In this document: positions 12,085 through 63,912 of the stretch, piece after piece
Layout: the number at the start of each line of letters is the position of its first letter
Numbering within the stretch: position 1 is the stretch's first letter
Made by a program: the position numbers and the translations under genes
Notes under the pieces: generated by a model
The model's input: only the letters and a program-made list of their open reading frames with translations
What the model was told of the DNA's origin: nothing
The model's database searches: none
Assembly (NCBI GenBank): GCA_030272155.1
Contig: CP126191.1
Coordinates: 1,572,501 to 1,636,500, forward strand
DNA: 64,000 bases
Direction of reading: 5' to 3'
DNA from: Tetradesmus obliquus
Lineage: Eukaryota; Chlorophyta; Chlorophyceae; Sphaeropleales; Scenedesmaceae

Positions 12085-15000
12085 ATGGCTTCTCCTTTTG
12101 GTGGAGGTGCGCTTTGTGCTTATCTGATGCCGCAGGAGCCAACTGCAGGGAGCAGCAGCAGTGGCAGCAGCAGCATGGCCTGAAGCAATACATCTCCTGA
12201 CATCCTGGCATGCGGCCATGTTTCATCAGGAAAGACAAGATCTGCATGTTTTACCCACAAATCACAACTTTGGTTGTCTGCAGGAGCGTTTGGGGCCTCC
12301 ACAGGTGGTGGATTCAGCTTTGGCGGTGCCTCGACCCCCGCAGGTTGGTTTCGGTTTTATGCTGGGGTGCTGCAAAGTCAAAGATCACAGCTACATCACA
12401 GCATACCAGCATTACACAGCAATCTGCCTCATAAGGCTACAACCGCAGCGCAGCTGTGGCCACCTTGCAAGCACCACAACAGTGGTGATCGTGCAAGCAC
12501 GCCCGGTACGGACACAGCTGCCCACCAGTTCATAGCGACGCCCGCTGCCTTCCTGTATCGTCTTCCCTGTGTGATGCCATGCTTGCACTGGTTGAACGCA
12601 TTGAGACCCTCTAACCCTGTGAACCCCACTACCCATCTTGCTGTGCTGTGCAGCAAGCAGCACTCCTGCATTTGGGTTTGGCGCTGCACCAGCAGCAGCA
12701 GGCACTGGCACAGCAGGCTTCAGCTTTGGCGGTAAGCAGCAGCAGTGCATTTCTACATGTGTTAATGACGTAACAGCCATGCATGTAGGCAGTGGCACAC
12801 ATTTGGCATGGCGGCACAAGCAGTGCATTCTCTACTGTTGCTTGGGGTGTTTCAACAGGCAGCAGGGATCACTTTCGGGTTGAACCAGTAATTGAGGCTC
12901 AGCTTGTATAATTGCTTTGCTTGCTCTGCAGTACCCTGTCCGTGTTGGCAGATGCACACATCCGCAGATGTGCGCACATCAAACAATTTGCGGCTGCTGT
13001 CAGCATGCCGGATATAACATGCTACTGCTCTCTGTTGTATTCCTTGCTTGCAGGTGCTGCACAGCCAGCCGCACCAGCTGCATCGCAACCTGCTGCCTCT
13101 AGCGCGCCAGCATCCGGCGGCTTTGGAGGGTTTGGCGCAGCAGCTAGCGGCGGTTTTGGCGCTTCAACCGCCGCCCCGGCAGCAGGTAGCACACCAGGCT
13201 TGTTTGGGGCGAGCAGCGCAGCAGCGCCAGCTGCAGCATCTGCGCCAGCGTTTGGCGCTGCAGCGCCTGCAGCAGGCAGCGCCCCGGCATTTGGCACGCC
13301 AGCTGCTGGCACGCCTTCGTTTGGGTTCGGCGCGCCTGCGAGCTCTGCGGCAGCACCCGCAGCGGCAGCAGCGCCTGCAGCAAGCAGCGCACCAGCAGCA
13401 GGCGGCTTTGGGTTTGCCCTTGGAGCTCCAGCAGCTGCCAGCAGTGCAGCTGCTGCGGCGTCAGCAGCTGCCTCAGCGCCTGCTGCTGCTGGCGGCTTTG
13501 CTGGCTTTGGCAGCACCACATCAGCAGCACCTGCGGCAGGATCTCAGCCAGCACCAGCGTCAGCAGCAGCAGCACCAGCAGCAGCAGCAGCAGGATCGGC
13601 CCCAGCGTTCGGCTTCGCACCGGCCGCTGGTGCCTCTTCAGCAGCGGCGGCCAGCTCTGCAGCAGCAGCAGCAGCAGCAGCGCCAGCAGCAAGCTCAGCT
13701 CCTGCTGCAGCAGGCACAGCCTTTGGCTTTGGCGCCGCGCCTGCTGCTGCTGCTGGGTCTGCTGCTGCTTCCAGCGCTGCTGCATCAGCTCCAGCAGCCA
13801 GCACTGCAGGCGCGCTGGTTCCTGCAACCAGCAGCGCGCCAGCTGCGGCAGGATTGGCTGCAGCCGCCGGCTCTGGCGCTGCTGCCGGGCCCACCGCCAC
13901 TCCTCCAGGGCCCACCGCCCCGAAGATGCCCAACCAGCTTGCAGGAAAGAGCCTCGAGGACATCATTACAGGCTGGCAGCAGGAGCTGGAGAAGCACTCA
14001 GTGGCATTTGTGGGCCAGGCGCGGCTGCTGGCAGCATGGGATGGTGCAGTGCTGGCAAACAGGCACGCGCTGCTTGATGTGGAGCAGGAGCTGCGTGCTG
14101 TGCATGCTGGGCAGGATGCGCTGGAGAGGCAGCTGGACATGATCGAGACACACCAGAAGGTGCGGCATGCTGGCAGGTTTCCTTTGTTTAGCAGTGCGTG
14201 TGCTTGCCGTGCATTGTTGTACTGTTGGGCAGAGCTGCACTGGCAGCTGGACATGATCGAGACACACCAGAAGGTGCGGCGGGGCTTGCAGTGTTTCTTG
14301 TTGTTCAGCAGCGCTTGCGCTTACCGCGCAGCATGGTGAGGCAGCGGCGTAGGTGGTGAAGCTGGCAGTACAGTGTGCTGCGTTGTGTGCAGGCGAGCAG
14401 CTGCAGGAGCCAGCGGGCGCGGTGCAGCGTATCTTTCAGCAGCACATGCTGTTGATCCTTCTCTGCTCTGCACACACCTGCAGCAGGTGCACGACTCGCT
14501 GGTGAGCGTGGAAGCAAAGGCTGAGTGATGTGCCAACAATACTACAGCTCCCATGGATCTTGATGCTGCTGCTCCTGCTGTTGCTGTGGATGTCCTTTCA
14601 CACTCGCAGGAGGTGCATGACTCGCTGGTGAGCGTGGAGGCTGAGGCTGAGCGGCTGTTCAGCGCGGAGCGCGCGCTGATGGACGCCGACACGCAGGACA
14701 GGGACAGGCTGTACAGCCGCGCGCAGGCGGTGAGCGGCGCTGCAGCAGCTGCGGGGTAGTCGTTGATTGTGAACAGCAGTAGCTGCCGTGTGAACAGCGG
14801 CTATCCCAGCAATCGAGCACTATACCGGTGGCCCTGTTGCCAGCTGTGGAGGCGGTTAATGACAGAGAGATTGCCTTTCGCGCGTTGTGAAGTGTCATGC
14901 ATTCTGCGCAGTGGCGGGGTTGTGTGTGCAAGGTGCAAGAGAGCAAGCAGCAACTCATTGCTAGCTGTTCTGAAACGCGGCAAGTTCTAACGCAAGTGCA

Positions 15001-15400
15001 GATGCACGCACGTCTCTTGTGCGTGGCAACCCCTGCCAGCACTCCTCACCTGTGCCTCCCTGTCGCGTGCCTGCCACCATCCTCTTCGAAGGTTGCCTCT
15101 CTCATCCTGTGCATTCTTATCCCTCTCTCTCTATCATTGCAGGTCAGTGGTGCGCTGAGCAGCTTGGCCAGCGAGCTCACGTGCAGCGTTGACCAGGTCA
15201 ACGAGCTGGCGGCTGCCTCACTGGGTGACGCCTCAACACCCATGGGCAGCGTGGTGCGCGTGCTGAACGGCCAGCTGCAGGCGCTGGGGCAGCTGGAGGG
15301 TAGGGTTGAGGAGCTGAACGGGCAGCTGGCGGCACTGAAGGTGGCGGCGCCTGGGCTGGGGGCCGGCAGCGGCTTTAGCGGCATGATCCGGGCGGCATGA
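12085..15400 (+). CDS. NUP62: Nuclear pore protein Nup62 (FG-repeat plus Nsp1-C coiled coil)
   Basis: Six exons with consistent phases: 12085-12106, 12284-12343, 12654-12731, 13054-14159, 14610-14729, 15143-15400 (547 residues). The N-terminal two thirds carry FG motifs (MASPFGG, GAFGAS, GGFSFGG, TPAFGFGAA) separated by long Ala/Pro/Ser spacers. The C-terminal part matches the Nup62/Nsp1 coiled-coil domain: PKMPNQLAGKSLEDIITGWQ, then AWDGAVLANRHALLDVEQEL and ERQLDMIETHQK, continuing in EVHDSLVSVEAEAERLFSAE and a final heptad-rich exon. In the known complex this domain pairs with Nup54 and Nup58 to build the central transport channel, while the FG region binds transport receptors. The first exon is only 22 nt. 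The intron after 14159 contains ghost copies of both flanking exon edges. Length is close to animal and plant Nup62. Confidence 0.93.
14130..14330 (+). repeat. 114-bp tandem duplication across a NUP62 exon-intron boundary
   Basis: The last 30 bases of NUP62 exon 4 (14130-14159) recur without visible change at 14244-14273, again followed by a GTGCGGC donor-like sequence. About 55 bases of intron after each copy are also alike. The spacing of 114 is a multiple of three and the frame is open through both, so the second donor could add 38 residues. Confidence 0.85.
14475..14650 (+). repeat. Ghost copy of NUP62 exon 5 start
   Basis: The acceptor and first ~45 bases of exon 5 (from 14610, GTGCATGACTCGCTGGTGAG) have a close copy about 126 bp upstream at 14484-14525, itself preceded by a CAG acceptor-like sequence. 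The copy runs into a TGA soon after, so it does not look usable as an exon start. Confidence 0.82.
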
Positions 15401-17547: not shown

Positions 17548-17582
<35 letters not shown>

Positions 17583-20500
17583 GCAGGGATGAACCAGGCG
17601 TAGAGGTTGTACTTTAGCTCGGGGATAGCAGTGGAAGAGTAGTTGGCGTAGACCTGCAAACAACGGGCGGCAGAAGCAGCAGCAGCAGCAGCAGGATTGC
17701 CAGGAAGAATTCGCCCAGCACGCGATACAGCGACACTAGAGTCCATTCGAGCATGGTGCAGCTGCGCGTGTACTAATCACAGCTGCAAGGCTTGCTGGTG
17801 TTGTTTGCCCAGCTCGAAGTGCTGGTATACTTGCTGGATGAACTGCCTGTCCAGATAACCCTCTCTCATTGCGTCCTACACATTGACACAGTGACACACC
17901 AACGCACCAAATTGCATGCTTTGAAACCCACCACCTGCTAAACCCGCACAGCTACACCCGCACCTGCAGTATGTATTGCCCTGGGCTTGGGTTGCGCATC
18001 AGGACTGCCTCATCCGACCCTGGTTGAGCTGATTGCCACACAGCAGTCAGCGTAGGATTAAACACAAACAGATCAAGCTCTGGATTGCCTGAGTAGTCTT
18101 GCGCAAACAGCGCAAAGCGAGCATATGCCAAGCCTTCTGGTACGCTGAAGCCCAAGAAACTCGGCTTGTCGCTCGCTGTGCCAGTTACAACAACTGCCGG
18201 CACTGCTCCGTATGCTGTGAGCTCCAAGGTTCCGCTGAAGGCAGCGGTGACGCTGTAGCGTCCAGATACTGACGGCTGCTGCGCAGTCGACAGCGTTACA
18301 GACGCCGGTACAGTTGCAAATGGAACAGTTTTGACCGCCAGAGGGATTCGAGCCGTTGATCCCAAGTTGCTGGTCCAAGTTATAGCGCCAAACATGTATG
18401 TGCCGAACGGGGCGCCTGGCTTTACGGTTATGCTGATGGTTAGGGTTTTGATGCGGCCGCGGTTCACAGTGAAGGTTGCCGGAGACACCTCAGCTGACAG
18501 GTAGGCTGATGCATTGCCGGAGTTGAAGCTGACAGAAGCAGTGAAGGTGGCATTGCGGCCCAGCTCAACGTTCTGCAGGATGGAAACAGGATGGGTGATG
18601 TGTACGCTGCAGTTAGTGAACCAGCAGCTGGGTGCCAACTTGAGGTCAAATCATGCGATCTTTTGCCACAACCACCATCAACACAGGCTCAAAGCTTTGC
18701 GCCGAGTCACGTCAGCGCAACATGCCAACCTAGGGTACTGTACCCCAGCGGCAGCGCCAATATGTTTGGCAGGAACGCACAGCATCACTATGTGGTGTTT
18801 GAACACAGCTGCTTGTAACCTGCTGTTGGGGAACTGCAAAATGCACACTCCCCTGCACCACGCGAGTGAAGCTGCGCTTCAGCCCAGGCTGCAGGTTCGT
18901 GAAATGCACCAACTCGGTTTCTGCTCCACAGCATAACCTGAAAACCTGAGTTAAAGCTTTCAGCACCTGACACCATTTTAACAAAATGAAGACGCAAAGC
19001 ACACCCCAATTCGTGCTGTCGCAGGCTGCAACCGTCATCTGCCACTGCCACGCTGTTATGGCTCAAGGCTGACCATAACAGGGGCCCCAGCGCGTTGGCT
19101 AAGCCACACTCACCTGCACCACGCGAGTGAAGCTGCGCTTGAGCCCAGGCTGCAGGTCTGGCAGCGATATTGAGGGCGCGTTGAAGTTGTCTGGGTTGCA
19201 CTTGGCAGGGCTGACATCACACACACTGCAAGTGCGGCAGAGCGCAGCATGCCGGAGAACTCAGCGCTGTACACATCAACAAATCAACATGTCGATTGGT
19301 TGACATGGGTGTAAGATGCAGAAATGTTGCAAGCTTGGTGCAGTAGTGTCAATCAGGCTACCCACAAAGTCTACCCTGCTGGATCCAAGTGCAGCAGTGG
19401 AATGAGTCTGTGGCAATGATAGCGCTTGCAACTCTCGCCCCAAACACGCACAGCAAAACGCCACGCTACTGCTGGACGTTATAACATTGTTAGTAACGCA
19501 TGCGCACCTGCACCAGGTGTCTTCGGGCTTGCGCTCCACGCCACACAGGAAGTTCTGCCAGTCTTCAAAGTTCGAGTCGAACACCAGCCCGGGGTTTAGG
19601 GCCTTGAGCGGGTCAACGTGACCCGACCCAAAGTCAAACGGATCGCCAAACACTTGGCCGGTGTTGCCTGTGCGCGTTGTCTGGTAAGCAGACGTCATCA
19701 TGGCTGCAGGGTGCAGGGGACGGGGGCAGCAGCAGGGTCACAATCTGTAGGGTGAGGGCACTTGGTGTATGCTGTCCATGCACAACCATCGCAGGCAGCG
19801 ATGATCCTCCATCAGGATTAATCCGGGCATGACACAGCTGTACTGTTGCTTGAAAGCAGACTGCGTGCGCTTGCTGCTGTGTGAAAGCACACTGCTTGCT
19901 GACTCGTGTCACGCAGCAGTGTCTTCAGAGCTGCCTGTTGGCTCACCTGACTTTATGGCCATGGGGCTCCAGCGCGGGAAGCGCTGCCGCAGCAGTACAG
20001 CAATGCCGGCCACGTGAGGGGAGCTCATAGAGGTGCCTGCAAGCAGAGAATGTTATGTTGTGATTGCAAGACGACCTGATATGTAATGTTTTTTGGCATG
20101 CTGCACCAAAGGTGTCAGCCGCAGGCGTGCATCCCTTGACATGCGCACCAGTTGGTAAAGTGCTGCAGGCTGCTGTTGTGCTGTTGTGCTTATGTTTGGC
20201 ATGTCTTTGGGTGTCGTTGTGGCATGCACAGCAATGTGTCCTGCCAGCTGGGCAAGCAAACCAGCGCCAATCTTCACACAGCACCCCAAACCCACAACAG
20301 CATACACATCTGTTGATGCAGAGCCACCACAGCAGCTGCCGCACCTGACACAATTGCAAAGTTGGGGTTGAAGTCCTGCCTGGGAGCCCATGCAGCCAGA
20401 ATGTCTTGGCCTGCAGGCAATGGAAGGATAGCAGCGGCAGCGGCAGCGGCAGTGGCCGGATACAAGTAGCTCGTGTGGCCATCACAAGCTGGGCGGCGGT

Positions 20501-23291: not shown

Positions 23292-26200
23292 CAGGCAGGC
23301 AGCCGGGGTGTGTCAAGATCAGGCAACACACAGAGCAGCTGCAGCAGCGGTGACCACACAGGTCCCTTTGACGCGACCAACAGGCAAGCTGAATGCAGCT
23401 GTCAGATTACAGGCACCAAGCAGCCAAACCCTCACCCCCAAACCCTACCTTGGTGCAGCTCCTGACAGCCGTGCCGACCACTGAGCGCCATACTTGTCGC
23501 CAGGCACTGACACTCCCCAGTTGCCTGCTGCTGTCACTCACCTGCACTATCGCTTCCCATGTGACAGACACATGAGTGCCCAGAGCTCATGGCAAGGCCT
23601 AAACGCAACGTGTAGGTGGTTGCAATAGTATGCTGTTTGTGCGGTGAGCAAACAAACATAGCACTTGAGGCGCTCTCCAACCCAGAAAAAGCAGACCAAT
23701 GCAGTCAAACTTTCAACCCCAAACCCTACCTGGGGGCTGCTCCGGACAATTTTGCCGTCCACTGGGGTCCATACTTATCGCCAGGCACCGCCACTCCCCA
23801 GTTGCCTGCTGCTGTTGATGCCGTGTGAGAGCCGTGGCCAGCGGCGTCGCTGCAGAAACGTAACAAGCAGCAAACGTGCAAGCGCTGTTCGTGACGTGCT
23901 TGCCTGGGCGTGCTTTGTGATATGAGGGTATGGGCTGCATAACAGGAGAAGCGGGCACTGCAATGTAAGCGACACTGCATTAATGTGACTGCAATGTAAC
24001 TCCTGTTGCTGAAGCTGGCAGCTGCGTTTACACATGCTTGCATTGCAGCCAACAGTGATCTGCCATGCAGTGACTTGATGATGTGTTATTCTTGTGGGAA
24101 GTAACATGAAGGTAACATGTCACCAGCGCAGCTCACCTGCAGCTGAGGGTTTCGTTTGGGTAGTTTGTGGCTATGGTTGACTCATTGCCCATGCCTCTGT
24201 AGAAGAACTTGCAGCCAATGACCTTCAAGCTGCAACAAGGGCAGCACAGGAAAGCACGTCAAGCCTGCATGTTCCTGGGTGCTGCTGCCATTGCCAGCCA
24301 CAACACATGCTGCATCATGCTGCAGCGCATCATATGCATCTGCCTGCAGTTTTCAGTCACCGCTTCCTGAGGCCTGCAGATAGTACTGATCAGCTGCAGA
24401 GTTGTCGGCACGCCATACATAGTAAGCCCTTCGTCACAGCTTGCATAAACCCTTGATGAGTAAGCAAATATCCTCACTTGCAGGTGCTGGTGGGAAAGCC
24501 TTGCCCCTCCTGGCAGGTGGTGTTGAAGGTCTTGGCCCTGCGCCTGGTGGGGTTGCTGTAGCTGGCGTCAGCAGCAAAGGAGGGGTGACCTGGCGAGTAG
24601 CCAGTGTCAATGATGCCCACAACCATGCCCTCGCCTGCACGTCAACACAGCCAGCAGATTGCCAGACCATAATGCGTGAGGTGGAGAAGATCACAGAGAT
24701 GCTATGTATTAGAGTTTTTTCTTCAAGCAGATCACCATGCCCTCGCCTGCACGCCAACACACCCAGTAGTATGCCAGACAGTAAAGCGACGAGGACAACA
24801 TCACAGAGATGCTATGCATTGGAGTATCTCACTCAGGCAGACCACCATGCCCTCGCCTGCACGCCATAACACCCGGCGTGTGGTGTGTTGCAGGCTCAAG
24901 AGCAAAGGATCACAGAAATACAATGAAAGGAAACATGCAGACAAGAAGTTCTGTGCTGCTTTCAGGCTGGTAGCAGACAAAAGTTTTGCAGGCAAGGCAT
25001 GAAAGTACAACAGCAGCCAACAGCAGCCGTTGCACATACTGTGTCCATGCAGTGCTGGCCACGCACCTGCTGAGGCTGTGCCCAGGGTTGCAGGGCTGGG
25101 CCTTAGCCTGTCCCACATGCCTCCACTGCCATCCTGCGCGGGGCCTGACACAGCAAACAACAATAACAGAGAAGGCAATCGCAGGCGATGCACATGCATG
25201 GTGGTTTAGGTGTGTATACGCTGCAGCATGCTGGGCGCAGTCAAGCCTGCAGAGTTGCGCACACGCTTGCGAAAGCTGCAACCAGGCAGGCAACGCCCCT
25301 GCAGCAGCAAAGCCCTTGAGGCGGTGGGCAGGCGATTGCATATGGTTCAACACCTGCTTTCTGCGCTGTGTTATCAGTGCCGTCGATTTCACAATGTTGG
25401 CTGCTAGCTGCTTCAGCCAGCAGCCCTTGCCTGCAGAGCCACCAACTGCTGCACCTGTGGCGTCACTGCTGCACCTGCAGAACTGCCTGCCGATGCACCT
25501 GCAGAACTGCCTGCCGATGCACCTGCAGAACTGGCTGCCGATGCACCTGCAGAACTGCCTGCCGATGCACCTGCAGAACTGCCTGCCGATGCACCTGCAG
25601 AACTGGCTGCCGATGCACCTGCAGAACTGCCTGCCGATGCACCTGCAGAACTGCCTGCCGATGCACCTGCAGAACTGGCTGCTGCTGCACCTGCAGAACT
25701 GGCTGCTGCTGCACCTGCAGACGTATCTGCTGCTATACCTGCTGCTGCACAGTGCATCAATGCTGTGGCAGAACCACCGACTGCTGCACCTGCACCTAAC
25801 TGGCTGGCTGTCATGTGCCTCGCAAAGCTTCCCCACCTGCTAGCCCGAGAAATCGAATTGAGGCATCTGTCATGGTGTGCACCAGCTCATTCCTCTCCAC
25901 GCGCGCCACGTTCCGGTTACGCCGCAGTCCTGCTAGCTCACTGTCACTAGGGTTCTTCACCAAAAACCCTGCCAGCGTCGTCTGGTACTTATACCCTATG
26001 CTGCTCGGCTGCAGCCCGGCTTGTGCTGCTACAGCTGCCGACTGCGCATTCACGTGTGCAGCATATGCTGCGGCGGCGGCACTGCTGACATCCAGCCGCC
26101 CGCCACCTGCTGATGCAGTCGCTGCAAGGCCGCTGACTCCACCACTGTAAGCAGATAGCGGCGCTGTTTTGAGCTGCACTATGTATGAGCTTGGTAGTGA

Positions 26201-39152: not shown

Positions 39153-42100
39153 TTACTGCTGCCTGCGCCCCAGTGCTGCGCCAGCCCCACTGCCATAGCC
39201 GCGCAGGCGGCGGCGCTGGCCGCCCGCTGCTGCTGCTGCTGCCAGGCGGCGCCGCCCTACATTGAAGTCAATGTTCTCGTTGCTGCCCAGCGCCACGTTC
39301 TCGCTGCGCACGTTGGAGGACTGCGTGGCTCCCACGTAGTTGAGCTGGTCGGACGCGCCGCCTGCAGCGGCAGCAGCAGCAGCAGCAGCAGCAGCAAGAT
39401 ACAGTATCAGCATGAGCTGCAGCAGCAGCAGCAGGATGGAGTATCAGCATCAGCTGCAGCAGCGACAGCACAGGTGTTCTAGTGTACACCGTTTTCAGGC
39501 AGGGGGGCTTCTGGACCAGCATTGCTCGCAGCTGCACGGTTGTGCATTTACCATGCCTAAACTGGGTCGGGTTCAGTCTCGAAAGTGTATTGTATTGTGT
39601 ATTGTACTGTAGATTGTAATTTTACAAATCAGCAGCCCACAAGCTACCCGTCACGAAGTTGGGCTGATTGCAAGCGTCGCATGCAGATCATGATCGCCTT
39701 AACGCGCATGCACAAACGTTGCTCCCGTACAATCAAACAGCTGGCATTCAAGCCAAGCTGCATCTGCTTTGATACAGCGACATCACACTACCATGCACTT
39801 GAACCCTGATGACAACAGCCTAGTCAAACCAACACCTGTCAGTCCTCATTATCCCTGCAGCACAAAACGTGCTTACCAGCCAACAGCAGCAGCAACAGGA
39901 TGGGGCAAATGCAGAAGCAGCCAGTCTCTCCGTGTGCGTCAGTCACTCTGTGTGCAACAGTGCACCTAATGCAATTGCATTTTGCGCAAAAGGCAGCACG
40001 TAGGTGCAACAGGCTTGCAGCCCCTCCCACCTGAGATGTAGTTCCTGCTGACGGTGGTGCCTGCATTGCCGCTGCTGATGGCCACTGCTGGCCGCTGGCT
40101 GTTCTTCCAGGTGGTGCCACGGATGGCTGAGGCAGCACCCGCACCAGTCTGCTCAAAGGGGTCTGCGCGCAGCACACAGCACATGGGGTTACAGCGCATT
40201 TACTTTTAGGGCTGTTTGCCGAGTCGAAAGGTTGGGCTGTCAAACGGATCTGCGCGCAGCACACAGCACAGGTGGTGCAGTGACAGCAGGTTGCTCACTG
40301 GTAGACTGACGGATTGGGCGGCAGGTGTCACTTGGGCAGCTGAAGTAGAGAGTGTGCGAAGCTTTAATGTGGGGGCAAGAACAGCATCAGGACGTGCAGC
40401 AGACAAACAACAAGCGACAGCAAGGCAAGTCACTCGCTGGGCAGCATGCAACACTCGACAGCCTGGCAGCCTGGCAGCGCTGGTCAACTTAAGACAAGCA
40501 AGAATCCTGCTTTAGTTATGAGCATGGCGGAGCACTCACTGGCTGGCACAAACACTGGCGTCCTGCCAAAGATGTCATCATTGGCGCGTGCAGCAGTGGT
40601 TCCCCACAGCCCACTGGCTCGCACGTTGCCCCTGGCCACTGCATTGGCAGCCTGGGTCACATGGTTCATGCGGGCAAAAGCAGCACCCCTGCATCATGCA
40701 CACATGAACAGAGGAATAAAACAATTACAAAAAGTCAGCAATTGATCACGATGTGCTGCTGAGCAGCTGACATACAGGCTGTGCAGCATGGCAGGTTGAA
40801 CACAGCATCACGCACTGCGCAGGATGAACCTCGAGCCCCAAAGGATTATGTAGAGCCACGTGTTTGGCCCCCTGCGATGTCACTGCGACTGCAGTCGTAT
40901 TCGTCGCACCTGCCGACGTCGTTGTCCAGGTTTGTCGCTGTGGCGCCGGTGGCGACCGCGCTCTGGGGGATCGCCTGAAGCTGGCCGTAGTCGTAGTCGT
41001 ACGTGGCCGGCGTGGCGATGCCGGTCGCATCCTCCCTGAGGGCTTTAAAGATGCTGTAGTCGTAGTCTCCGGCAAAGGTGTAGTCCAGGCCGGTGGCAGC
41101 AAGCACCTCTGTGGCGGGAGGCAGCAGCAGGGCAGACAAGCGAATAACAATGACAGTCAGGGCCAAGCAGCATCCACTCAGACCAGGGCAGCCCCCCCGA
41201 GCTACAGCCCTCACAAATATGGCTGCACTGCTGCACTGGGCACTGCCGCACTGGCAAGGATACGACCGCCGCTGAGGGCGCTAAACCCTACCCCACTATA
41301 CCACAAGTTGATGGTTATGATCTCAAAGTTTGGCGGCGTTGGCCTCTTAAGGGCTGAGATAGCCCACTTTCAGTGTTTTGGCACCCCTTGATTACTTCCA
41401 GTGGGTGGCAGGCAAAGGGTTGACTCGTAGCAGCAGCTACAGCAGCAGCGGTCTGCCAGCCACTGACTTGGAAGCAAGCATGCCCTGCTGCATTGACTCC
41501 CAAGCAGATGGGCAGCAAGCAAAAATTCAGACACTCCCACAGCCTCGCCTCTCAGCCAGGCAGACGCCACAGCAGCACTGTTCATGGCTCAATTGCAAAC
41601 CACCAACCTCAGCACAAGGCAGAACACAACCTCTTGTCTACACTACTCCCATCATAACCATACCTGCAGAACATGGCCAGCTGAGGCTTGTGTATATAAA
41701 TGCATCCGCTGCTTACATCGCCGCCACTGCTCGTCCCAAGCACCCAGCGGGCAGCTGTCACTGGCGCCAACAGCAGCACAAGGCAGCACGCATCCCCAAA
41801 CACTACTAGCACCCATCAGCATACTGCGAAGCACATGGCAAAATGAGCTACACACATTGCCGCCACTGCCACTGCTCACCCCAAGCACCCAGCGGTCGAT
41901 TGTCACCAGCACCGACAAAGGCACGCGGGTTTGGCGTTGTGAAGTTGGCAGGGCCCGCGGGCGCGATGCGCCTCTGCGCGAGACTGTTGCTGCCCTCCGC
42001 CACACGCGAAGCAGTTCGGCCGCTGAGTGGCATAGCAATGGAGCGCGCGTCTGCAGCTGTGCGTGTGCTGGCGCTGCGGCGGTCGGAACGGCCGCTGTGG

Positions 42101-47100: not shown

Positions 47101-49657
47101 GCTGCTGCTGCACTGCCAGCTGCTGTCGCGAGCTTGGCTTCTAGTGCTGCCCGCTCGCGCTCCGCCTCTGCACGCTTCAGCGCGAGTTGCTCCTGCACGG
47201 CAGCACGGTGGATTTGTGAGTATGTTATACTTTGAGTAGCTATGGTTACACAGACGTACAGGCAGCAGCATGCAACACAGGTAAGGTGACTGCTCAACCA
47301 AACATTTGTCAATCCACACATTTCAGGTGCACTTCGAAAGACAGATCAGCTTGATGTTGAAGAGGGCCAGCCTCCAAGAGATATACCTGTAGCAACACAT
47401 GCTGCACCAGTGCAGCTGCAAAACAACGAACACCAGACAGACCGCCGCACATACCTGTATGGCTGCCTCGCGCAGCATGCAACACAGGTAGGGTGGCTGC
47501 TGAACCCAACATCCGCCAATGCATGCCGCAACAGCACAGCTGTGCACAAGACAGCGCGCAAAAAAGAAACTGCCGCACGCACCTGTATGGCTGCCCCACG
47601 CACGCACCAGTGCAGCTGTGCAGGAAAAAGAGCGCAAAAAACTTCCTGCCGCAAAAAAACATTTTGCCGTACCTGTATGGCTGCCTCGCGCTCGCGCCGC
47701 TCCCGCAGCTCCTGCTGCTTTGCGTCCAGCAGCTGCTGCGGCACGCCGCTCTCGTTGCTGCTGGCGCTGGCCAGCATGGACCACAGCTCCTGCAGCAGCA
47801 GCGGCAGCAGCAGCAGCATGATGCTCAGCCATATATAGCATTGCAGGTGAGAAGAAGGCCGTCACTAATATGCACACGCTTACCAGTTGGACAAAGGAGA
47901 CGACATACACGGGCAGCCTACTTAAAACCTGGTCTTACAACACACTGTGGATGGCAATGCACTGCATCACACCACGAGCATCACATTGACAAGCAATCCC
48001 AGCAGCAGCCCGAAACTCACAGTACGTGCCAACCAACCGCCATCTAGACATGCTCAGGCACCTGCATTGTCAGCACCCCCAAGCCCTAAACCATAACCCC
48101 TGGATCATCCAAACCCTTGAAACCCCACCTTCATGAAGAGGCTGGTGTTCTTTTCCAGGAATGGCAGCAGCTCCACATGCATCTCCTTGGGGCCGGTGCG
48201 CTGTATGAGGGCAGCAGCAGCAGCAGCAGCAGCAGCAGCGCAGTTTAAGCAACACAGCAGCAGCAGCAGCGGGCAAGCTCAACGCCGCCGCCAGTTTCCA
48301 GGGTCGCTTACAACTCCTGCAAAGACAGCAGGGTGGCAGTGCCGATAGCGCGAGGTGAGATGTGCTTTGTGCTTGAAAGACAGAGCAAACAGTTGGCTGG
48401 CACAGCTGTGGTGTTGGCTCGTGATGGGTGCAGCGCCAACCCTCAACATGCTCTGCCGTGTACGCGCAACATCGCGCGCGGTACCGGGCAGGTATCAGTG
48501 CAGCAACTTGCTAGGCAGGCATGGTGGTTGAGGTGCAAGCAGCCCCAGTGCACACTGTACCCAGCATGCAAAATTACAAAGAGCACAGCACTTGGACAAA
48601 GTGTGACAGGCAACATAACTTTGGCTGAAGGTTGCCGGGCAGCAGTGCAGGGGTGTGGCCCTCACCTGGTCGATGAGGTGGTTGTGGATCATGGAGATCA
48701 GCACCTGCGGCAGCGGCAGCAGCAGCAGCGGCAGCAGCAGCAGCGGGCAGCATAGACACGCAGTGCGCATGACTCGGCGGCAAGACATGCATGGCATGCA
48801 CGAGTTGCATTGACAGTGTGTGAACACGCCAGGGGTGCTGGCAGCACAGGCCCAGACATGCCACTCTGACCAAGCTAGTCAACAAGCATGACGAGCCTGC
48901 GGTGTCAGTGAGCATATGCTCGACGGACTTAATGCATCTTTGAGCCAGCATTGTTTGCACAACCTGCAGTATTCAAACTCCTCATGCTTTGCACCCCCTC
49001 GATCCATCTGCCCAGCAGCTCAGTGCACGTGCCTTTCGCACCATAAGCAGCAGCAGACTGAAGCTGAGCACACCAAACATGCAAGAAAAAAAGTTAACAC
49101 CATCACGCCCCGCACCTCCTCCTCAATGCCCAGCAGCTCGGTCACGCGCTTGGCACCACCAGCAGCAGCAACACAGAGCTGGGCACACCCAATGTAACAG
49201 AGAAAGTAACACCCCTTATGACGCACCTCCTCCTCGATGCCCAGCAGCTCTGTCACGCGCTTGGCCACCCACTCCTTCATGACCGTCCAGTTGACCTGCG
49301 GCAACAGCAGCGGTCTGGATCAGCAGCAGCGGCCTAGATCAGCACACAGCGCCAGCAACGGGGGTCTAGATCAGCACACAGCAGTTGATGGATGATCACC
49401 CGGAACCAGCAGCAACGAGTTCATGATTGCTGCCTCGCTCTGAGCATCACACAGCCCAAGAGCACAGCAGCAGGCCGCCCCTGATTGCTGTGCTTGGTAT
49501 GCATTGCGTCCAAGTGTATTACCGCAAGCATTTATATTCAGGTTTTGATTGAAGTTTGTACAAGTCAATTCATACTCCAAATACTCCGCTCGCGCTGCCC
49601 CACCTTGTCCCTATCCACTGGCAAGTCCAGCTCTGCAGGGAACTTCATCTTCTTCAT
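44197..49657 (-). CDS. SRRM1: SRRM1/SRm160-like splicing co-activator (PWI domain, SR-rich tail)
   Basis: Exons, phases consistent: 49657-49604, 49295-49227, 48704-48666, 48200-48129, 47789-47673, 47192-46708, 46502-46443, 45526-45386, 45095-45003, 44644-44197 (525 residues from this ATG). The N-terminal 120 residues form a PWI domain: KFPAELDLPVDRDKVNWTVM, KEWVAKRVTELLGIEEE, VLISMIHNHLIDQ, MHVELLPFLEKNTSLFMK, then LWSMLASASSNESGVPQQLL. The PWI fold binds nucleic acid. In animals and plants the protein links spliceosome and exon-junction complex. The tail is RS/RE-rich (RRSRSRERGGKLRRGSRSRS), then KEKKAKKDKKHKKDKK and an acidic Ala-rich end. The start is uncertain: the frame is open to about 49710 (FFGNASKSKAAMKK), where the usual GFFRGTS lead is missing, so an upstream exon is likely. 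Shorter than human SRRM1. One intron holds a hAT MITE. Confidence 0.88.
44655..44715 (-). repeat. Short TCAAACTTGG-type tandem repeat before acceptor
   Basis: Six imperfect 10-base units (sense strand TCAAACTTGG, TCAAACCTGG, TCAAACTCAG and similar) end ~10 bases before the acceptor of the last SRRM1 exon (44644). This is the same repeat family as at 5113-5169, but opposite in sense orientation. Confidence 0.8.
45654..46169. mobile_element. hAT-type MITE (non-autonomous DNA transposon)
   Basis: A 516-bp element begins and ends with the inverted repeat TAGGGATGTGC, and the inverted similarity continues into GGAC and GTATAAT. It is flanked by a perfect 8-bp target-site duplication, GTTATGCC, at 45646-45653 and 46170-46177. 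TAGGG-type termini and an 8-bp duplication are hallmarks of the hAT superfamily. The interior is AT-rich, full of TATAC/GTATA steps, and has no transposase. It lies in the SRRM1 intron between exons 46502-46443 and 45526-45386, so it is spliced out. The perfect target duplication suggests a fairly recent insertion. Confidence 0.93.
47380..47700 (-). repeat. Four tandem copies of an SRRM1 exon end
   Basis: The real exon ends at 47673 (sense GAGGCAGCCATACAG|gtacgg). Copies of GCAGCCATACAG plus a GT edge lie near 47585 and 47455, and a weaker one near 47382. Shared intron text includes CACCAGTGCAGCTG and a GCAAAAAA stretch. Spacings are about 90-130 bp. Confidence 0.85.
49116..49295 (-). repeat. 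Ghost copy of SRRM1 PWI exon end, in frame
   Basis: The last ~40 bases of exon 49295-49227 (encoding AKRVTELLGIEEE) recur at 49116-49155, each followed by a GTGCG donor-like edge. The spacing is 111 bp (37 codons). The frame is open through both copies, so the second donor could give a longer PWI domain with a repeated segment. Confidence 0.88.
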
Positions 49658-51153: not shown

Positions 51154-51548
51154 ATGGACGGCAGCGGCGACCCGGGCAGGCCCTATGCGGAGATGACAGT
51201 GCCGCAGCTGAAGCAGGAGCTGCAGGCACGCGGCATCGATGCCAAGGTGGGCGGGCAGGGCAGCACAACCCTCAGCTATGACAGATGTGCGCAGCATGCT
51301 GTGTGTATGTTTGGAGTGGGGAGCAGGGGCATCGACGCCAAGGTGCGCGGGGGCGGCATGCGCACAGCGCTGAGGCGATTACCGCATGATGGCAGATACC
51401 TGTGTGACATATTTGTGTTGGGTGTGGGGGTGGGGAGGGGGGGGGGGGGGGGAGGGCGTCGACGCCAACGTGGGCGGGCGGCGCCGACAGCAGCTGCATC
51501 AGGCACTGCTTGGCGCAATGCAGTGTGGCAGATGTCTGCAAGTTGTAG

Positions 51549-51613
<65 letters not shown>

Positions 51614-51940
51614 GGGGGGGGGGGGGGGGGGGGGCGGCCAGGGGCAGCGACGCCAAGGTGGGCGGGCAACGTGGGCAGAGGACTTTCACAGTGCACCATG
51701 GCAGATACCTGCAACATGTAGTGTTTGTGTATGTGTGTTTTGGGGGCCGCCAGGGGCATTGACAGCATAGAGCACAGGCGGTGCTCGCCACACACCAGCA
51801 CAACGCATCTGCGATACGATGTGTGCATGATGTCTGCTGCTGCTGCCCCCGCTGCTGCTGCTGCAGGGCCGCAAGGCTGATCTCATTGCGCGCCTGGAAG
51901 CAGATGACGAGGAGTTTGCAAAGGAGCTGCAGCGGCAGGC

Positions 51941-53757: not shown

Positions 53758-54785
53758 TGTCCAACATCTCCGCAGGCGTCACCCCAGAGGAGCTGCGGCA
53801 GCTGCTCACAGGCCCAGGGGGGCTGCAAGTAGACAGGCTGGACATGGCTCCACAGCAGCTGCCCGGCAATAACACCGGCAAGCAGCAGCAGCAGCAGCGG
53901 CTGCAGGTGGCGTATGTGCGGCTGCCAGCCACCACGAGGCCCTGGGCTGCTGCTGCTGCTGCTGCTGCTTCCAGTGCAGCTGCGAGTGGCGCTGCTGCTG
54001 CTGGCGCTGTTTCAGATGATGCTGGAGCGAAGGAGGAAGCTGCGGGCAAGGATGCTGCTGCTGATGCGGCATCAGCTGGCAATGGTGATGCAGCAGCAGC
54101 AGCACTGACAGCTGCACTCGCAGCAGCAGCAGCAGTACCTCCTGCTGATGACAAGGAGCAGCCAGCAGCAGCAGCAGCAGCAGCTGGTGGCAGCAGCAGC
54201 CAGGATGCTGGGCAGCTCACTGCAAGGCAGCGGCGCCAGAAGCGGCGGCGGCTGATCGCTGCGACTGGTGCTTCTTCTGGGTATGACATTCTAGGTGTGG
54301 CTCGGACAGTGGTGGTGACGCTGGCTGGCAAGCGGCTGGCGCTGCAGGGGCGGCCGCTCATGTTTGAGGCAGTCATGGAGCAGGTGGGTTGTGGGGTTAT
54401 GGCTGTGATGTTTATTGATGATGGGTTGGTGCTGGATGCATCTTGCAGCTGCAGGGGCGGCCGCTCGTGTTTGAGGATGTCATGGAGCACGTGGGTTCGT
54501 GGGTGAGGGTTTTGTTACTGGTTTGGAGTGTGTTGGTGTGGTGGATGCATCCCGCAGCTGCAGGGACGGCCACTCATGTTTGAGGCTGGTGATGGACGCA
54601 TGTGTGATGTGGCGGCTGATGGGGCATCTCACTGCTATGCCCAACCTTTGCTGCACATGGTAATGGGTGTTATGGCAAGCATCTGACAGCATGCACCGTT
54701 GGGCCTTGAACTATGCTGCTGTGGACAGCAAACGTGTAGCTTTGAGGTACCCCACCCTGGTCGTCAGCCTCACGCGTCCAATGCA

Positions 54786-54840
<55 letters not shown>

Positions 54841-55358: not shown

Positions 55359-55391
<33 letters not shown>

Positions 55392-56351: not shown

Positions 56352-56387
<36 letters not shown>

Positions 56388-56571: not shown

Positions 56572-56602
<31 letters not shown>

Positions 56603-59600
56603 CCTCACCATGCAGGCGCAGCGCTGGAAGGCCAGCTACTCCTTCCCCCGCTGCGCCAGGGACCTCTTTGCTACAGCGCTGCAGCTGGTGGGTGTGCCTG
56701 GCAGCTGCCGCAGCGAGGCGGCGCTGCGCTCGGCACTGGGCAGATACGGCGCGGTTGCAACCGCACAGGTGCGTCACGCGCTGTGCTTTGTGCATTTGGA
56801 GGTTTGCGGCGTGTTGTCTTCTTCTAGTGCTCGTGGATGTGATTTGCTGTAGTTAGCGCTGCTGCTGCTGGCAAGCTGCATGCTTTTTTGGATGGCAAGG
56901 TGGGGCAGCGCTGCAGCTGGTGGGGGTGCCTGGCAGCTGCCGCAGCGAGGCGGCGCTGCGCAGCGCACTCGGCAGATACGGCACGGTTGCCAGCGCGCAG
57001 GTGCGCCACGTCCTGTCTTGTGTGCAGTCAGACAGCTATTCTGTGCCGTGTGCTGCTGTTGAGCGCTGCATGTGTGCCCTCCACTTGCGAGGTGCACAAG
57101 CTGTGACTGTTGCCGATAGCCATCCACCTGACGCATGCTGTGTCTCCTTCCCTTGTTTATGTCCTCTTCCCACCTGACGCATGCTGTGTCTCCTTCCCGT
57201 GTTTATGTCCTCTTCCCACCTGACGCATGCTGTGTCTCCTTTCCGTGTTTCTGTCCTCTTCCCACCTGACACATGCTGTGTCTCCTTCCAGGTTGGTGCG
57301 GCTGAAGCGTGTGCGCGTTGCTGGTCCAAACCCACAGTAAAGTTCCTATAGGATTTTGTTGTCATCAGTCAAAACTGACCCGAGCTGTTCCTCTGTCCCT
57401 GTTCTTTCAACCTGTTGCAGGTGCCGGTGCAGCATGCGTTCCTGCTGGTGTGTTGACTTGGTTTGTGCTTTGCTGAGAGCTGACCAATGCTGTGCCTGTG
57501 TCCCTATTCGGTTCGTTTTTTGCAGGTGCCGCAGCAGCGTGCGCGCATTGCTGGCCCAGAGGCTACGGTGTATTCGGTGTGTTGTGTTGTGGCAGTTGGT
57601 GGGGCTGCGTGGGCCTGCTGCTGCTGCCTACGTGTTATTGTCATCAGTCAAACCTGACCAATGCTGTGCCTCTGTCCCTTTCATTCACCCTTTTGCAGGT
57701 GCCGCAGCAGCGTGCGCGCATTGCTGGCCCAGAGGCCACTGTGGAGTTCCAGAACAGCGGCTCGGCTGATGCAGCATACAGGGCCCTGCTGGGCCTGCCA
57801 CCCAAGCAGCAACAGCAGCAGCAGCGTGCAGCAGCAGCAGGTGGTGCTGCTGCTGCTGCTGCTGACGCTGAAGGAGGCAATGCAGAGACTGCAGCAAACG
57901 TTGCAACAACAAACGTGAATGGCCAGGCAAGCAGCAGTGATGAGCTGTGCCTGATCACCAAGCACACGGGGTATGTCTTTGTGTCTGCTGCAGACCCAGC
58001 AGCAGCATACGGCGGCATGCCAGGTCAGCCGCTGTGTGTGGCGGGGCTTGGGGTTGTATTCCTAAACCCTTCCAGGGAGGCTGAAAAGCGCCAAGCCCTG
58101 CTGCGAGGAGCAGCAGCAGCAGCAGCAGGCCCGGCAGCAGCAGGGCAAGCAGCAGCAGCAGGCGGCATGCGACCCGGCATCCTGCCTGTCCCTGCGCCGC
58201 CGGCCAGGCCGCCGCCGCCCGGTACGGGTGGGGTTCTGCAGCGGGGCGGTTTAGGTGGTGGTCCAGGGTTTGGGGTTCAGGGCCCAGCAGGGTTTGGCGG
58301 CAGGGGCGGCCCGCCAGGAGGGCCAGGGTTTATGCCTGGCGGCAGGGGCGGCCCGGCTGGTGGGCCAGGCATGATGGGGCATGGTGGGGGCTTGAACCCT
58401 GCGATGGGGCGTGGTTCAGGCCGTGGTGGGCCAGGGTTTAACCCTGCAATGGCAGGTGGACCAGGGTTTAACCCGATGGCAGCGATGGCTGGGATGATGG
58501 GCCCCGGTGGCCCTGCCGGCTCCCGGCAGCAGCAAATGGCCGCTGCTGCTCAAATGCAGCAGATGCAACTGATGATGATGCAGCAGATGGCGCTGATGCA
58601 GCAGCAGCAGATGGCTGCTGCAGCAGCAGCACAGAAGCAGCAGCAGCTGCCGGGCGCTGCTGCTGCTGGGGCTGGGGCCAGGGCTGGTCAACCTTCGCAG
58701 GGTTTACCTAAACCTCCGGGTGTTATGCCAGGTCAGCAGCAGCAGCAGGGTTCAGGCAGGCCCAGGGCCCCTGCCCCTCCCCCAGGACCTCCCCCAAGGG
58801 GCCAGCAGCAGCCAGGCGGTATGCCAGGTCAGCAGCAGCAGCAGGGGATGCAAGGCGTGCAGAGGGCTGTGCAGAAGCCTCAGCAGCAGCAGCAGCGACA
58901 GCAGCAGCAAGGTATGGGCATGCAGGGCCAGCAGGGCATGCCTGGTGCAGGGATGCAGATGGCAGCTGGTGGCAGGGCTGCAGCTGGGATGCTGGGGCGT
59001 CAGCAGCAGCAGCAGCAGCAGCAGCCAAAGGCTGCAAAGCAGCAGCAGCAGCAGGGCTCGGCTAGGATGCAGGGGCAGATGCGTGGCAGTGACCAGGGTG
59101 AGGGTTTTGCGGCAGCAGGGTTTGGCACCAGCCCACAGCAGCAGCAGCAGCAGTTGTGGCAGCAGCAGCTCATGATGGCTGGGGCAGCAGCAGCTGGTGC
59201 GAGCGCCGGGCGGCAGCAGCAGCAGGGGCAGCAAGGTAACTGGCAGCAGCAGCAGCAGCAGCCTCAAAAAATGCAGCAGCAGCCGGTGCAGCAGCAGCAG
59301 CAGCAGCTGGCAGCTTGGGATGGTGCTGCGGACTACACGCCCTGGGGTGATGAGGAAGATGTGTTTGATCTGGCTTTCAGCGGAGCACCTGACACTGCTG
59401 CTGCTGCTGCTGCTGCTGCTGGCGGCGGCATGGCTGGCGTCAACATGATGGGCGGGGCAGGTGGCGCTGCGCAGGCCATGCAGCAGCAGCGGCAGCAGCA
59501 GACTGCCAGGCAGCAGCAGCAGCAGCAGCAGCAGCCACAGAAGCAGCAGGTAAGGCAGGCGCAAGTGATGCCGGGGCGGCAGCAGCAGCAGCAGCAGGCG

Positions 59601-60550: not shown

Positions 60551-60588
<38 letters not shown>

Positions 60589-61802: not shown

Positions 61803-62332
61803 ATGCGTCTGCTGTTAATAGCAACTGTAGTATGGACGTTTTGTATCAGCGGGACTCACGCAGCAGACCATGCCCTGAACGCTGTGGATGCTGCTGAGGA
61901 TGTGGTGCTGAATGTGAGTATTGAGACAGAATGCAAATTACCAGGTGAATGCCCTGTTGCAACGATGATGTTTACCAAAACACTCAGTACCGGGCAATTG
62001 TACAAAGCACCACAAAGTTCAGGGCGGCGCCGATCTCTGACATGACTGCATAACCAGGTTGCTGCTGCTGCGCCAGCAACACCAGCAGGCGGACAGCAGC
62101 GAAAAGATTTTGTAGAGTTGTACCTAATGTGACATAGAAAGTCTCTGCCAGTTTGAGTTTGGTGCCGCACCTGGCAGGTTGAGCAACCAGATCATACTGT
62201 CCATGAGTGTTGCCTCTGCATCTTTGCACTTGCAGGACAGCGACGCTCCAGTCGCTGTGGCGGCTGCTTGGCAGGCAGCAGTGCCATCCCTGATAGGAGC
62301 AGATGGGCCGCTGCTGACACAGGTGGGCTGGC

Positions 62333-62381
<49 letters not shown>

Positions 62382-62434
62382 GCAGCAGCAGCAGCAGCAG
62401 CAGCAGCGGCAGCAGCAGCAGCAGCAGTAGCAGC

Positions 62435-62471
<37 letters not shown>

Positions 62472-63051
62472 GCATGAAGGCCCTGGCCAGAACTACATCA
62501 AAATTTGATAACAGCTGACCACAGCCAGTAGTGGCTGAGCAGCCTGGCAGGGTTTTGTGGTGAAGGGTTGGCATCCTCATCCCTGTATCAGCGTTGGCAT
62601 CCTCGCTTCTATACAGGACCCACATGCAACCTCCCTCTCTGTATGACAATGTCTGTAACCGGCACAGTGCTGCAGTGGCACAGTAGGTGCTCTGGAGTTT
62701 CCCAGACCCTTTTGCAAGGCATCAATTCACTCTATGAGTGCCTGCTGCTGAAGATTTGATCATCTTGTGTTCAAATGCAGGTGGAAGCCGCCCAGAGGCT
62801 AGGACTGTCAGGCAAGGGCACCACCGTGTGTGTCATCGACACGGGCGTTGACATCAGCCACCCCAACTTTGGCGCGTGCAGCGAGGGCATCCGTGGCAGG
62901 GCCTGCAGGGTCAAGTTTGGCTTCGATGCAGAGAGCGACTCCAGGGACCCTGTGAGTGTGCCTGACAGCGGTACTACAGATATGAAGTTGCAGTGCATAG
63001 ATAGGTTGTACAGAGTTCACCATGCCAAGTGGCATGTGTACCGACAGCAGA

Positions 63052-63096
<45 letters not shown>

Positions 63097-63912
63097 GCAA
63101 TTTAGTCTTGCATTGTGGGGTCCTTCTGCATGCTGGTCTGGATGCTGCAGTAGAACATGGTGGCACTCACGCCTGTTGGCTCACATGGCGCCCATCCTGC
63201 GTCACGGCTACAAGGTCCAGCAACAGCAGAACAAGTTGCAGTGACATCAGCAGCGCGGAGCAAGATGCAGCCGCTGCTGCCTGCACATGCCCACATGTAT
63301 GCTGCATCCCTCTTTTTCCCCCTGCCCTGCATCATTCCAATGCCAGTCCCCCAGGAGAACAGACTCAGCGGAGGCGGGCCATGGCACGCATGTGGCTGGC
63401 ATTGCAGCGCCATGAGTTGTCAACGCAGCCACTGCTGCCGCCCATACCCATACATGCTGTGGCCTTACTACCTCTCTGTCCATGCCTTCCGTGCAGTCCC
63501 CAAGGCGGACCGTCACAGCAGACGCTGGCCATGGCACGCATGTGGCATTCCTGCTGTGCCGCAACACCGCTAACCTCCTTCCCCCTTCCGTGCCTGCAGT
63601 TCCCCGGGCGGACCGACACAGCGGAGGCGGGCCATGGCACGCATGTAGCTGGCATTGCAGCGCCATGAGTTGTTAATGCAGCCACTGCTGCCGCCCATAC
63701 CCATACATGCTGTGCCCTGTCTTTCTGTAACCTCTCTGTCCATGCCTTCCGTGCAGTCCCCGAGGAGAACCGACACAGCCGAGGCAGGTCATGGCACGCA
63801 TGTGGCTGGCATAGCAGTTGGTGGCTTCCCTGACAAGCTGCTGGACGCTGCAGGCAAGCCCCTGCCGTACCAGCGCGGGGTGGCGTATGAGGCACGCCTG
63901 GGAGCATTGCGG
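61803..63912 (+). CDS. Second subtilisin-like serine protease, 5' part (runs past window end)
   Basis: Exons seen, all phase 0: 61803-61913, 62236-62322, 62781-62951, 63757-63912, with more beyond 64000. The start gives a signal peptide (MRLLLIATVVWTFCISGTHA); an in-frame ATG at 61767 would add 12 residues. Catalytic Asp lies in TTVCVIDTGVDISHPNFGAC and His in TDTAEAGHGTHVAGIAVGG; the Ser part is outside the window. The spacing and the FGA/GR insert differ from the 17327-26341 subtilase, and only a short region precedes the Asp domain, so this is a different subfamily rather than a recent duplicate. The intron before the His exon holds three ghost copies of that exon's start. The intron after 62322 begins with a long CAG run. 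Confidence 0.88.
62334..62472 (+). repeat. Long interrupted CAG run in subtilase-2 intron
   Basis: About 46 CAG units with a few CGG and TAG interruptions begin about ten bases after the donor at 62322. This is one of few triplet runs in CAG rather than CTG sense orientation, and it sits at the intron 5' end, not at the acceptor. A shorter CAG run (63054-63094) follows the next donor. Confidence 0.92.
63340..63830 (+). repeat. Four tandem copies of the catalytic-His exon start
   Basis: The real exon starts at 63757. Copies of its CAG acceptor and first ~60 bases start near 63350, 63497 and 63600. Each keeps the codons of AGHGTHVA, and each is preceded by the same CTCTCTGTCCATGCCTTCC-type leader or part of it. 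Copies one and three run to a TGA after GIAAP. Spacings are about 147, 103 and 157 bp. Confidence 0.9.

What the first reader, a model, noticed from the sequence alone, without database searches (positions are those of the whole stretch)
14130..63830. Exon edges repeatedly duplicated into adjoining introns across seven genes
At no fewer than 14 splice junctions in seven genes (NUP62, two subtilases, DUF1348, the secreted unknown, SRRM1, SAP-RRM), a block of 20-100 exon bases next to the junction plus nearby intron is repeated inside the intron. Each copy keeps the exon edge and often a GT or AG. Both donor-side and acceptor-side copies occur, many at spacings of 88-130 bp. The pattern does not depend on gene family, so it points to a general process of intron growth by tandem duplication across splice junctions, or to a selected arrangement of decoy or alternative splice sites. 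Tandem duplication is a known proposed route to intron gain; a genome-wide, junction-anchored version at this density is not something I recognise as described.
Basis: partly seen in the sequence, partly recalled or inferred. Interest (0 to 1): 0.92.

Follow-up and report, generated by a model that had tools for sequence, protein, structure and literature searches.

The report
Exon edges copied into neighbouring introns
In this alga-like genome, stretches of about 120 bases straddling the edge of a coding piece have repeatedly been copied side by side, leaving spare exon ends with splice signals inside introns that tend to be longer.

Summary
Exon edges recur, in direct orientation, inside the adjoining intron at 59 of 736 predicted junctions (8.0%; 21 of 586 outside one hot block) in 314 kb from four contigs. 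Chance rate is 0.05%, the exon-interior control 1 of 272. Inverted copies: 0 of 793. Distance to the copy is narrow: 40 of 59 at 90-134 b; an annotation-free lag spectrum peaks at 120-134 b with multiples. Exon and intron parts are both copied, so these are tandem duplications of a ~120-b unit crossing a coding edge. Stop-codon edges show it too (6 of 40), start codons hardly (1 of 48, probably a split gene), so it is not specific to splice sites. Copies drift at about the synonymous rate and keep GT/AG no more than expected, giving little support to selected decoys. Introns with a copy are longer (median 382 vs 271). Purely non-coding duplications lack the 120-b peak (4 of 27). One 50-kb block holds 38 of the 59. 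Why the unit is ~120 b, and whether coding edges are targeted or only better survivors, is unresolved.

The parts
14135..14305 (+).
14473..14636 (+). Acceptor edge (exon start 14610, same gene) and upstream copy (start 14484), offset 126
18844..19157 (-). Subtilase A: donor edge of exon 19114-19225 and copy at 18853-18896, offset 261 (about two units), 96% over 53 b
23415..23802 (-). Stop-codon edge (predicted CDS end near 23729) and copy about 280 b downstream; not a splice junction
24607..24877 (-). Acceptor edge (exon start 24634) and two upstream copies at offsets 112 and 222
37351..37452 (+). DUF1348 gene: donor edge (exon end 37398) with an adjacent 51-b copy (short-unit exception)
   Evidence: DUF1348 domain reads across the intron
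41735..41924 (-). Donor edge (exon end 41907) and copy, offset 145; weak (score 23)
47420..47602 (-). PWI/SRRM1-like gene: donor edge (exon end 47583) and copy, offset 128
49035..49265 (-). PWI/SRRM1-like gene: donor edge (exon end 49227) and full-length copy, offset 115; exon and intron both copied
   Evidence: PWI domain reads across the intron
51324..51666 (+).
54348..54612 (+). Donor edge (exon end 54383, same gene) and copies at offsets 107 and 216
56736..57026 (+). Donor edge (exon end 56768, same gene) and copy ending 57000, offset 232
63344..63817 (+). Subtilase B: acceptor edge (exon start 63757) and three upstream copies of AG plus the HGTHVAG-coding exon start (copy starts near 63347, 63497, 63600)
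   Evidence: PF00082 match starts at 63754

Best explanation
The copies are remnants of tandem duplications with a unit of about 120 b (mostly 90-150) that crossed one edge of a coding segment. The block held some tens of exon bases and the neighbouring non-coding bases. The event lengthens the intron (or 3' flank) by one unit and leaves a spare exon edge with its splice signal (or stop codon). Such events survive when the cell still reads one intact edge: the first donor, the last acceptor, the first stop. Events across a start codon, or out of frame inside an exon, would be lost. Afterwards the spare copy and the intron drift freely while the functional edge is held by selection, so the exon edge stays recognisable longest. 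Shown: direct orientation, duplication of both sides in most pairs, unit length, occurrence at donors, acceptors and stops, longer introns with copies, near-neutral drift. Inferred: origin by fill-in of staggered breaks or template slippage, the survival rule, and some extra bias towards coding DNA.
For: Direct copies only: inverted 0 of 793. Profile around 63 donors and 42 acceptors: exon side ~0.9 at the junction falling with distance, intron side ~0.6 out to ~80 b against a base of 0.2-0.3 over most of the range; intron part above random at p<=0.05 in 52 of 75 pairs. Offset does not depend on the length of copy retained (r 0.03, 69 pairs). Lag peak at 120-134 b with multiples near 250 and 390. 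Differences by codon position .069/.063/.119: the copy changes at ~.066, close to the functional exon's own third-position excess of ~.05 (71 pairs). Substitution ratio exon/intron .53 (.43-.65) and gap ratio .37 (.22-.56), near my expectation of ~.6 and .5 for a held original plus a free copy (39 older of the 45 alignable out of 76 pairs). Stop edges 6/40 vs start edges 1/48, p .04. Introns with a copy 382 vs 271 b, p 2e-4; outside the hot block 405 vs 282, p .006. A protein domain reads across the copy-bearing junction in 9 of 10 fragments tested.
Against: A neutral simulation predicts better-preserved intron parts: with exon score 30 or more, 54% of 35 pairs have intron score >=8 against 80-100% simulated; with exon score 20-29, 33% of 27 against 69-100%; see also (median intron identity .70, random .60). 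Non-coding duplications do not share the 120-b peak (4 of 27 at 90-134, against 37 of 72 edge events, p .001), so a plain genome-wide mutation spectrum plus survival is incomplete; stop edges, which face no splicing filter, also show no short units (130-281 b). The lag spectrum also has short-lag signal (431 matches at 15-29, 577 at 45-74, against 986 at 120-134), part of it minisatellites. Exon-exon events do exist (38, 15). 38 of 59 positive junctions lie in one 50-kb block. Longer introns also offer more room for a copy.
Confidence: 0.6

Rival explanations
1. A distinct process aimed at coding edges: something about the coding/non-coding boundary (nucleosome placement, polymerase pausing, R-loops, paired nicks) makes breaks ~120 b apart, so duplications start there rather than merely surviving there.
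For: The ~120-b size is specific to edge events (62 of 76 exon-intron events with lag 15-200 lie in 90-149, against 22 of 61 intron-intron and 4 of 21 intergenic; 37 of 72 against 4 of 27 at 90-134). Scoring only non-coding sequence, 22 of 28 events at 90-164 b lie near junction pairs. Block C1:600-650 kb against the other 264 kb: exon-intron events 94 vs 50, intron-intron 33 vs 52, intergenic 5 vs 20, exon-exon 7 vs 31, so edge events are raised most.
Against: Array members are not independent, and intron-intron events there include copy-copy pairs. Outside the hot block, full-length duplicates at 75% non-exonic identity are 3 junction: 2 internal or 3: 5, as expected by chance. No motif or breakpoint signature was sought systematically.
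Confidence: 0.22
2. Selected decoy or alternative splice sites: the copies are kept because they regulate splicing or mRNA decay.
For: GT kept in 41 of 45 and AG in 22 of 26 copies; exon parts better preserved relative to intron parts than simulated.
Against: The kept fractions match drift at ~6.6% per site; first and second codon positions differ at that same rate, and the third-position excess is what the functional exon alone would add; stop edges show the same pattern.
Confidence: 0.07
3. Tandem duplicated exons used alternatively (mutually exclusive or cassette exons).
For: My gene finder called several copies short exons.
Against: Judged by eye, the far ends of the copies show no consistent AG or GT (105 pairs listed); offsets show no preference for multiples of 3 (23, 27, 21 of 71 for remainders 0, 1, 2); two of the three subtilase B copies run into a stop a few codons on.
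Confidence: 0.06
4. Insertion of a repeated element (introner-like) with long target-site duplications.
For: Exon-edge copies flank a ~70-b spacer.
Against: Spacers do not look like a family: of 298 cross-hits among 68 spacers the 25 best were shown, each either the same spacer listed twice or C1a spacers rich in CAG/CTG; spacer length falls as copy length rises (r -0.70), as for a fixed unit.
Confidence: 0.03
5. Assembly or sequencing artefact.
For: No reads could be inspected.
Against: Most copies differ by several to about 35 per cent, with substitutions and indels, and the pattern recurs on four contigs.
Confidence: 0.02

Closest known systems
Tandem duplication crossing an intron-exon boundary in potato RdRp (Ma, Lan & Niu 2016, PMC4974935; abstract, introduction and results section read)
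   Same: A block holding intron end plus exon start is tandemly duplicated; parental splice signals are inherited by the copy.
   Different: That is one case and it created a new intron. Here 54 of 421 introns (21 outside the hot block) carry a copy, on donor and acceptor sides and also at stops, with a near-fixed unit, and the copy stays inside the enlarged intron.
Rogers/Hellsten AGGT exonic tandem duplication and internal gene duplication (Gao & Lynch 2009): known from PMC4974935 and a reference list; the originals were not read
   Same: Tandem duplication within genes as a source of intron sequence.
   Different: As described there, those duplicate exonic segments or segments with whole introns; here an existing junction or stop is straddled and the non-coding side grows.
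[quoted passage not shown] start of abstract, two passages and a short summary seen)
   Same: A candidate route to direct duplications at breaks with complementary 3' overhangs.
   Different: Described at Cas9-induced breaks; no link to coding edges or a 120-b size in what I saw.
Introner elements (PMC9860276; search listing only)
   Same: Mass change of intron content.
   Different: No repeated element seen in the spacers.

Membership tests
Junction-crossing tandem genomic duplication | Direct duplicate containing both exon and intron sequence across a junction | tested here: met
   Profile over 105 junction pairs; intron part above random in 52 of 75
Junction-crossing tandem genomic duplication | Absent from relatives (recent derivation) | not testable with these tools
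   G000 has no relatives here
AGGT-type intron gain (Rogers/Hellsten) | Duplicated segment is exonic and makes a new intron | tested here: not met
   Intron sequence is part of the unit in most pairs; whether each intron predates the event needs relatives
Introner elements | Inserted sequence belongs to a family repeated across loci | tested here: not met
   No spacer family among 68 spacers beyond CAG/CTG-rich hits in the 25 best of 298 shown
Tandem or mutually exclusive exon duplication | Copies flanked by splice sites on both sides | tested here: not met
   Far ends lack consistent AG/GT (judged by eye)
Minisatellite | Arrays of several near-identical units | tested here: inconclusive
   Many clusters are a single diverged pair; one array of identical 130-b units at C1:605568-606014
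Selected decoy splice sites | Copy evolves slower than neutral sequence | tested here: inconclusive
   Copy rate ~ synonymous rate, near-neutral ratios, but intron parts more decayed than simulated

The most novel reading that the evidence does not exclude
A mutational process targeted at coding-sequence edges (splice donors, acceptors and stops) that duplicates blocks of a characteristic ~120 b, active unevenly along the genome, and a main route by which introns in this lineage grow in steps.
Probability: 0.3. Interest if true: 0.82.

Novelty: new variant of a known kind. Interest (0 to 1): 0.62.

Why it matters
Intron growth is usually put down to transposons and small indels (recalled). A tandem duplication of near-fixed size that straddles coding edges, visible at 59 of 736 junctions sampled (21 of 586 outside one hot block), would give a countable, datable mutation class and make intron lengthening directly testable. 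It would also explain cryptic splice sites with true exon flanks, a trap for gene prediction: my own gene finder took several copies for exons.

Tried and rejected
Rejected: chance repeats; inverted copying (0 of 793); element insertion with long target-site duplication; helical (8-13 b) or codon periodicity of unit lengths (none). A link of the hot block to a mating locus was looked at only through RWP-RK matches (7, on C4, C6 and C12, none on C1), a weak test. A model in which only the exon edge is copied, which seemed to favour, was dropped because searches show intron-side similarity in most pairs.

Discarded or limited results: (windows overlapped themselves and counted self matches; it gave 4 junction of 61 and a p-value near 1, an artefact). 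One search holds 3 same-intron 'upstream' donor rows that are self-mappings. The duplicate list, and the junction pairs taken from it, come from BLAST self-alignment, which I believe (recalled) drops hits closer than about 50 b to the main diagonal, so lack of short units there is no evidence; searches do not use it. In one search alignments were sought from 40 b on, so units under 40 b are mostly out of its reach. Later rounds of the first gene model drifted to tiny exons, so a penalised model was used. One search timed out, crashed (rerun), one search failed because the stretch held stop codons.

Literature: searches listed no description of coding-edge-anchored ~120-b duplications; only titles and abstract starts were seen except where stated, and the library lacks most subscription papers.
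Full report
Setting. The window is G000:C1:1572501-1636500, part of a 104.66-Mb genome in 17 contigs. The genome is CAG/CTG-rich, with a learned donor CAG|GTGAG and acceptor TGCAG|G and RWP-RK genes. From recalled knowledge this fits a green alga; the species was not identified. For background I fetched five 50-kb blocks: C1:600-650 kb (C1a), C1:4.30-4.35 Mb (C1b), and C2, C3 and C9 at 3.00-3.05 Mb. With the window this makes 314 kb.

Gene models. No annotation is held, so I trained a hidden Markov gene finder on the sequence itself, starting from six subtilase matches. It gave 53 genes, 480 exons and 434 introns. Check: ten 116-150-aa fragments spanning junctions with copies (10 of the 21 such introns outside C1a) were scanned; nine match a Pfam domain that runs across the junction (GH5, STT3 twice, kinase, RPE65, LON, DUF1348, PWI, folate receptor), one has no match. 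The RPE65 fragment shows a short repeated motif, so the model probably included a copy there. The models are good but not exact, and sometimes call a copy an exon, which lowers the counts for the window.

Is it real? Local direct duplicates, with simple repeats masked, exceed three kinds of null by orders of magnitude. The cleanest test aligns up to 40 exon bases at each junction with the adjoining intron (up to 600 b): 59 of 736 junctions score >=17 (35 donors, 24 acceptors), against 0.05% with introns of other genes and 1 of 272 exon-interior segments. 54 of 421 introns and 20 of 51 genes are affected. By block: window 6/138, C1a 38/150, C1b 2/133, C2 2/117, C3 7/96, C9 4/102; outside C1a 21/586. 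Inverted copies: 0 of 793.

Anatomy. Around 63 donors and 42 acceptors with a copy 60-330 b away, matches are about 0.9 per position on the exon side near the junction and fall to about 0.5 at 80 b. On the intron side they drop within about 6 b to about 0.6 and stay there to about 80 b, against a base of 0.2-0.3 over most of the range. The intron part scores above random at p<=0.05 in 52 of 75 pairs. So in most pairs the duplicated block straddles the junction. The part still alike without gaps is the exon edge (median 35 b at donors, 42 b at acceptors) plus about 8-9 b of splice signal. The distance between copies is narrow: 40 of 59 at 90-134 b, 21 of them at 120-134; among 71 clusters with spacing 85-170 the mean is 120.5, s.d. 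17.8, with no helical or codon period. A spectrum of 10-mer lags, made without annotation, has 986 matches at 120-134 b, with multiples at 240-269 and near 390; it also has short-lag signal (431 at 15-29, 577 at 45-74), part of which is minisatellites. The spacing does not depend on how much of the copy is left.

Which kind of edge? Stop-codon edges show copies in the 3' flank at 6 of 40 genes, spaced 130-281 b. Start-codon edges show 1 of 48, and that one (C1a_g7) pairs with a donor of the preceding model, so it is probably one gene split in two. A stop, donor or acceptor can be duplicated without changing the protein if the first stop, first donor or last acceptor is used; a duplicated start would usually change it. 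This fits a survival rule (inference) and shows that the process is not specific to splice sites.

Is the edge preference only visibility? The functional edge is held by selection, so an exon-edge pair decays more slowly than an intron pair. Windows inside introns find a duplicate in 16 of 625 and intergenic windows in 17 of 1125, against 8% at junctions; outside C1a it is 8/524 and 11/935 against 21/586 (p .04 and .003). To reduce the visibility effect I scored only sequence that is non-coding in both copies: of 28 events at 90-164 b, 22 lie within 130 b of junction pairs, against a share of about 0.36 expected for introns. Purely non-coding events away from junction pairs are few (27 over 8,812 windows) and 4 of them fall at 90-134 b, against 37 of 72 edge events (p .001). 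By 12-mer events, 62 of 76 exon-intron events with lags of 15-200 b fall in 90-149, against 22 of 61 intron-intron and 4 of 21 intergenic; in the other blocks alone it is 21 of 26 against 14 of 60 (lags to 210). So the 120-b size looks specific to coding edges. The excess of events at edges is less secure: with full-length duplicates judged at 75% non-exonic identity it is 8 junction to 2 internal with C1a, but outside C1a only 3 to 2 (at least 50 columns) or 3 to 5 (at least 30 columns), no more than the expected 0.36; at 65% identity it is 11 to 4 or 12 to 7.

Fate of the copies. In 71 pairs, differences at codon positions 1, 2 and 3 are 68/985, 63/993 and 118/988. The copy therefore changes at about 6.6% per site, and the functional exon adds about 5% at third positions: the copy behaves as unconstrained. 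GT is kept in 41 of 45 copies and AG in 22 of 26, about what that divergence gives. Of 76 pairs 45 could be aligned on both sides; in the 39 older ones the exon/intron ratios of substitutions (.53) and gaps (.37) are near my expectation for a held original and a free copy. One result goes the other way: in a simulation the intron part is better preserved than observed when the exon edge is nearly identical (54% of 35 pairs against 80-100%, and 33% of 27 against 69-100%). Large insertions, conversion of the exon edge, or mild constraint could explain it.

Effect. Introns with a copy have median 382 b against 271 b (54 vs 367 introns, p 2e-4), a difference of about one unit; outside C1a 405 vs 282 (21 vs 315, p .006). 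Longer introns also offer more room for a copy, so this is support, not proof.

Mechanism. A tandem duplication whose unit equals the stagger of two nicks or a filled-in overhang would give direct repeats of set size; [quoted passage not shown] start of abstract, passages and a short summary seen). What would set about 120 b and favour coding edges I do not know; nucleosome-scale protection of exons or polymerase pausing at edges are guesses.

Standing against the literature. Duplications crossing an intron-exon boundary are known as single cases, above all in potato RdRp, where the copy created a new intron (PMC4974935), and internal gene duplication is said there to be common (Gao & Lynch 2009, not read). 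I found no report of a dense, coding-edge-anchored class with a near-fixed ~120-b unit in the searches. I therefore class it as a new variant of a known kind, with a real chance that the targeting itself is new.

Noticed in passing
G000:C1:600001-650000 (L009-L013): Hot block: 38 of 150 junctions have a copied edge, 15 of them in one long gene (C1a_g1, 57 junctions tested). Against the other 264 kb, exon-intron events are 94 vs 50, intron-intron 33 vs 52, intergenic 5 vs 20, exon-exon 7 vs 31.
   Followed up: partly
L009:5568-6014: Array of several identical 130-b units with exon edges, next to more diverged single copies; looks like a recent expansion of an older duplicate.
   Followed up: partly
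window 16262-16428 and L018:8590-8640: A closely similar motif of about 40 b (GATGGCGTTGATGCTATGGCTTGATGGGTAACATGATGATG in the window, three bases different in L018) occurs in predicted intergenic DNA at two distant loci; possibly a dispersed repeat or 3'-end sequence.
   Followed up: no
window 25470-25721: 24-b minisatellite (10.5 copies) mostly inside a predicted exon of the minus-strand gene.
   Followed up: no
window and fetched blocks: Very frequent CAG/CTG (AGC) runs; 10-16% of each block was masked as simple repeat.
   Followed up: no
window 57124-57289: 46-b tandem array (3.6 copies, 95%) wholly inside a predicted intron, one of the purely intronic duplications.
   Followed up: no
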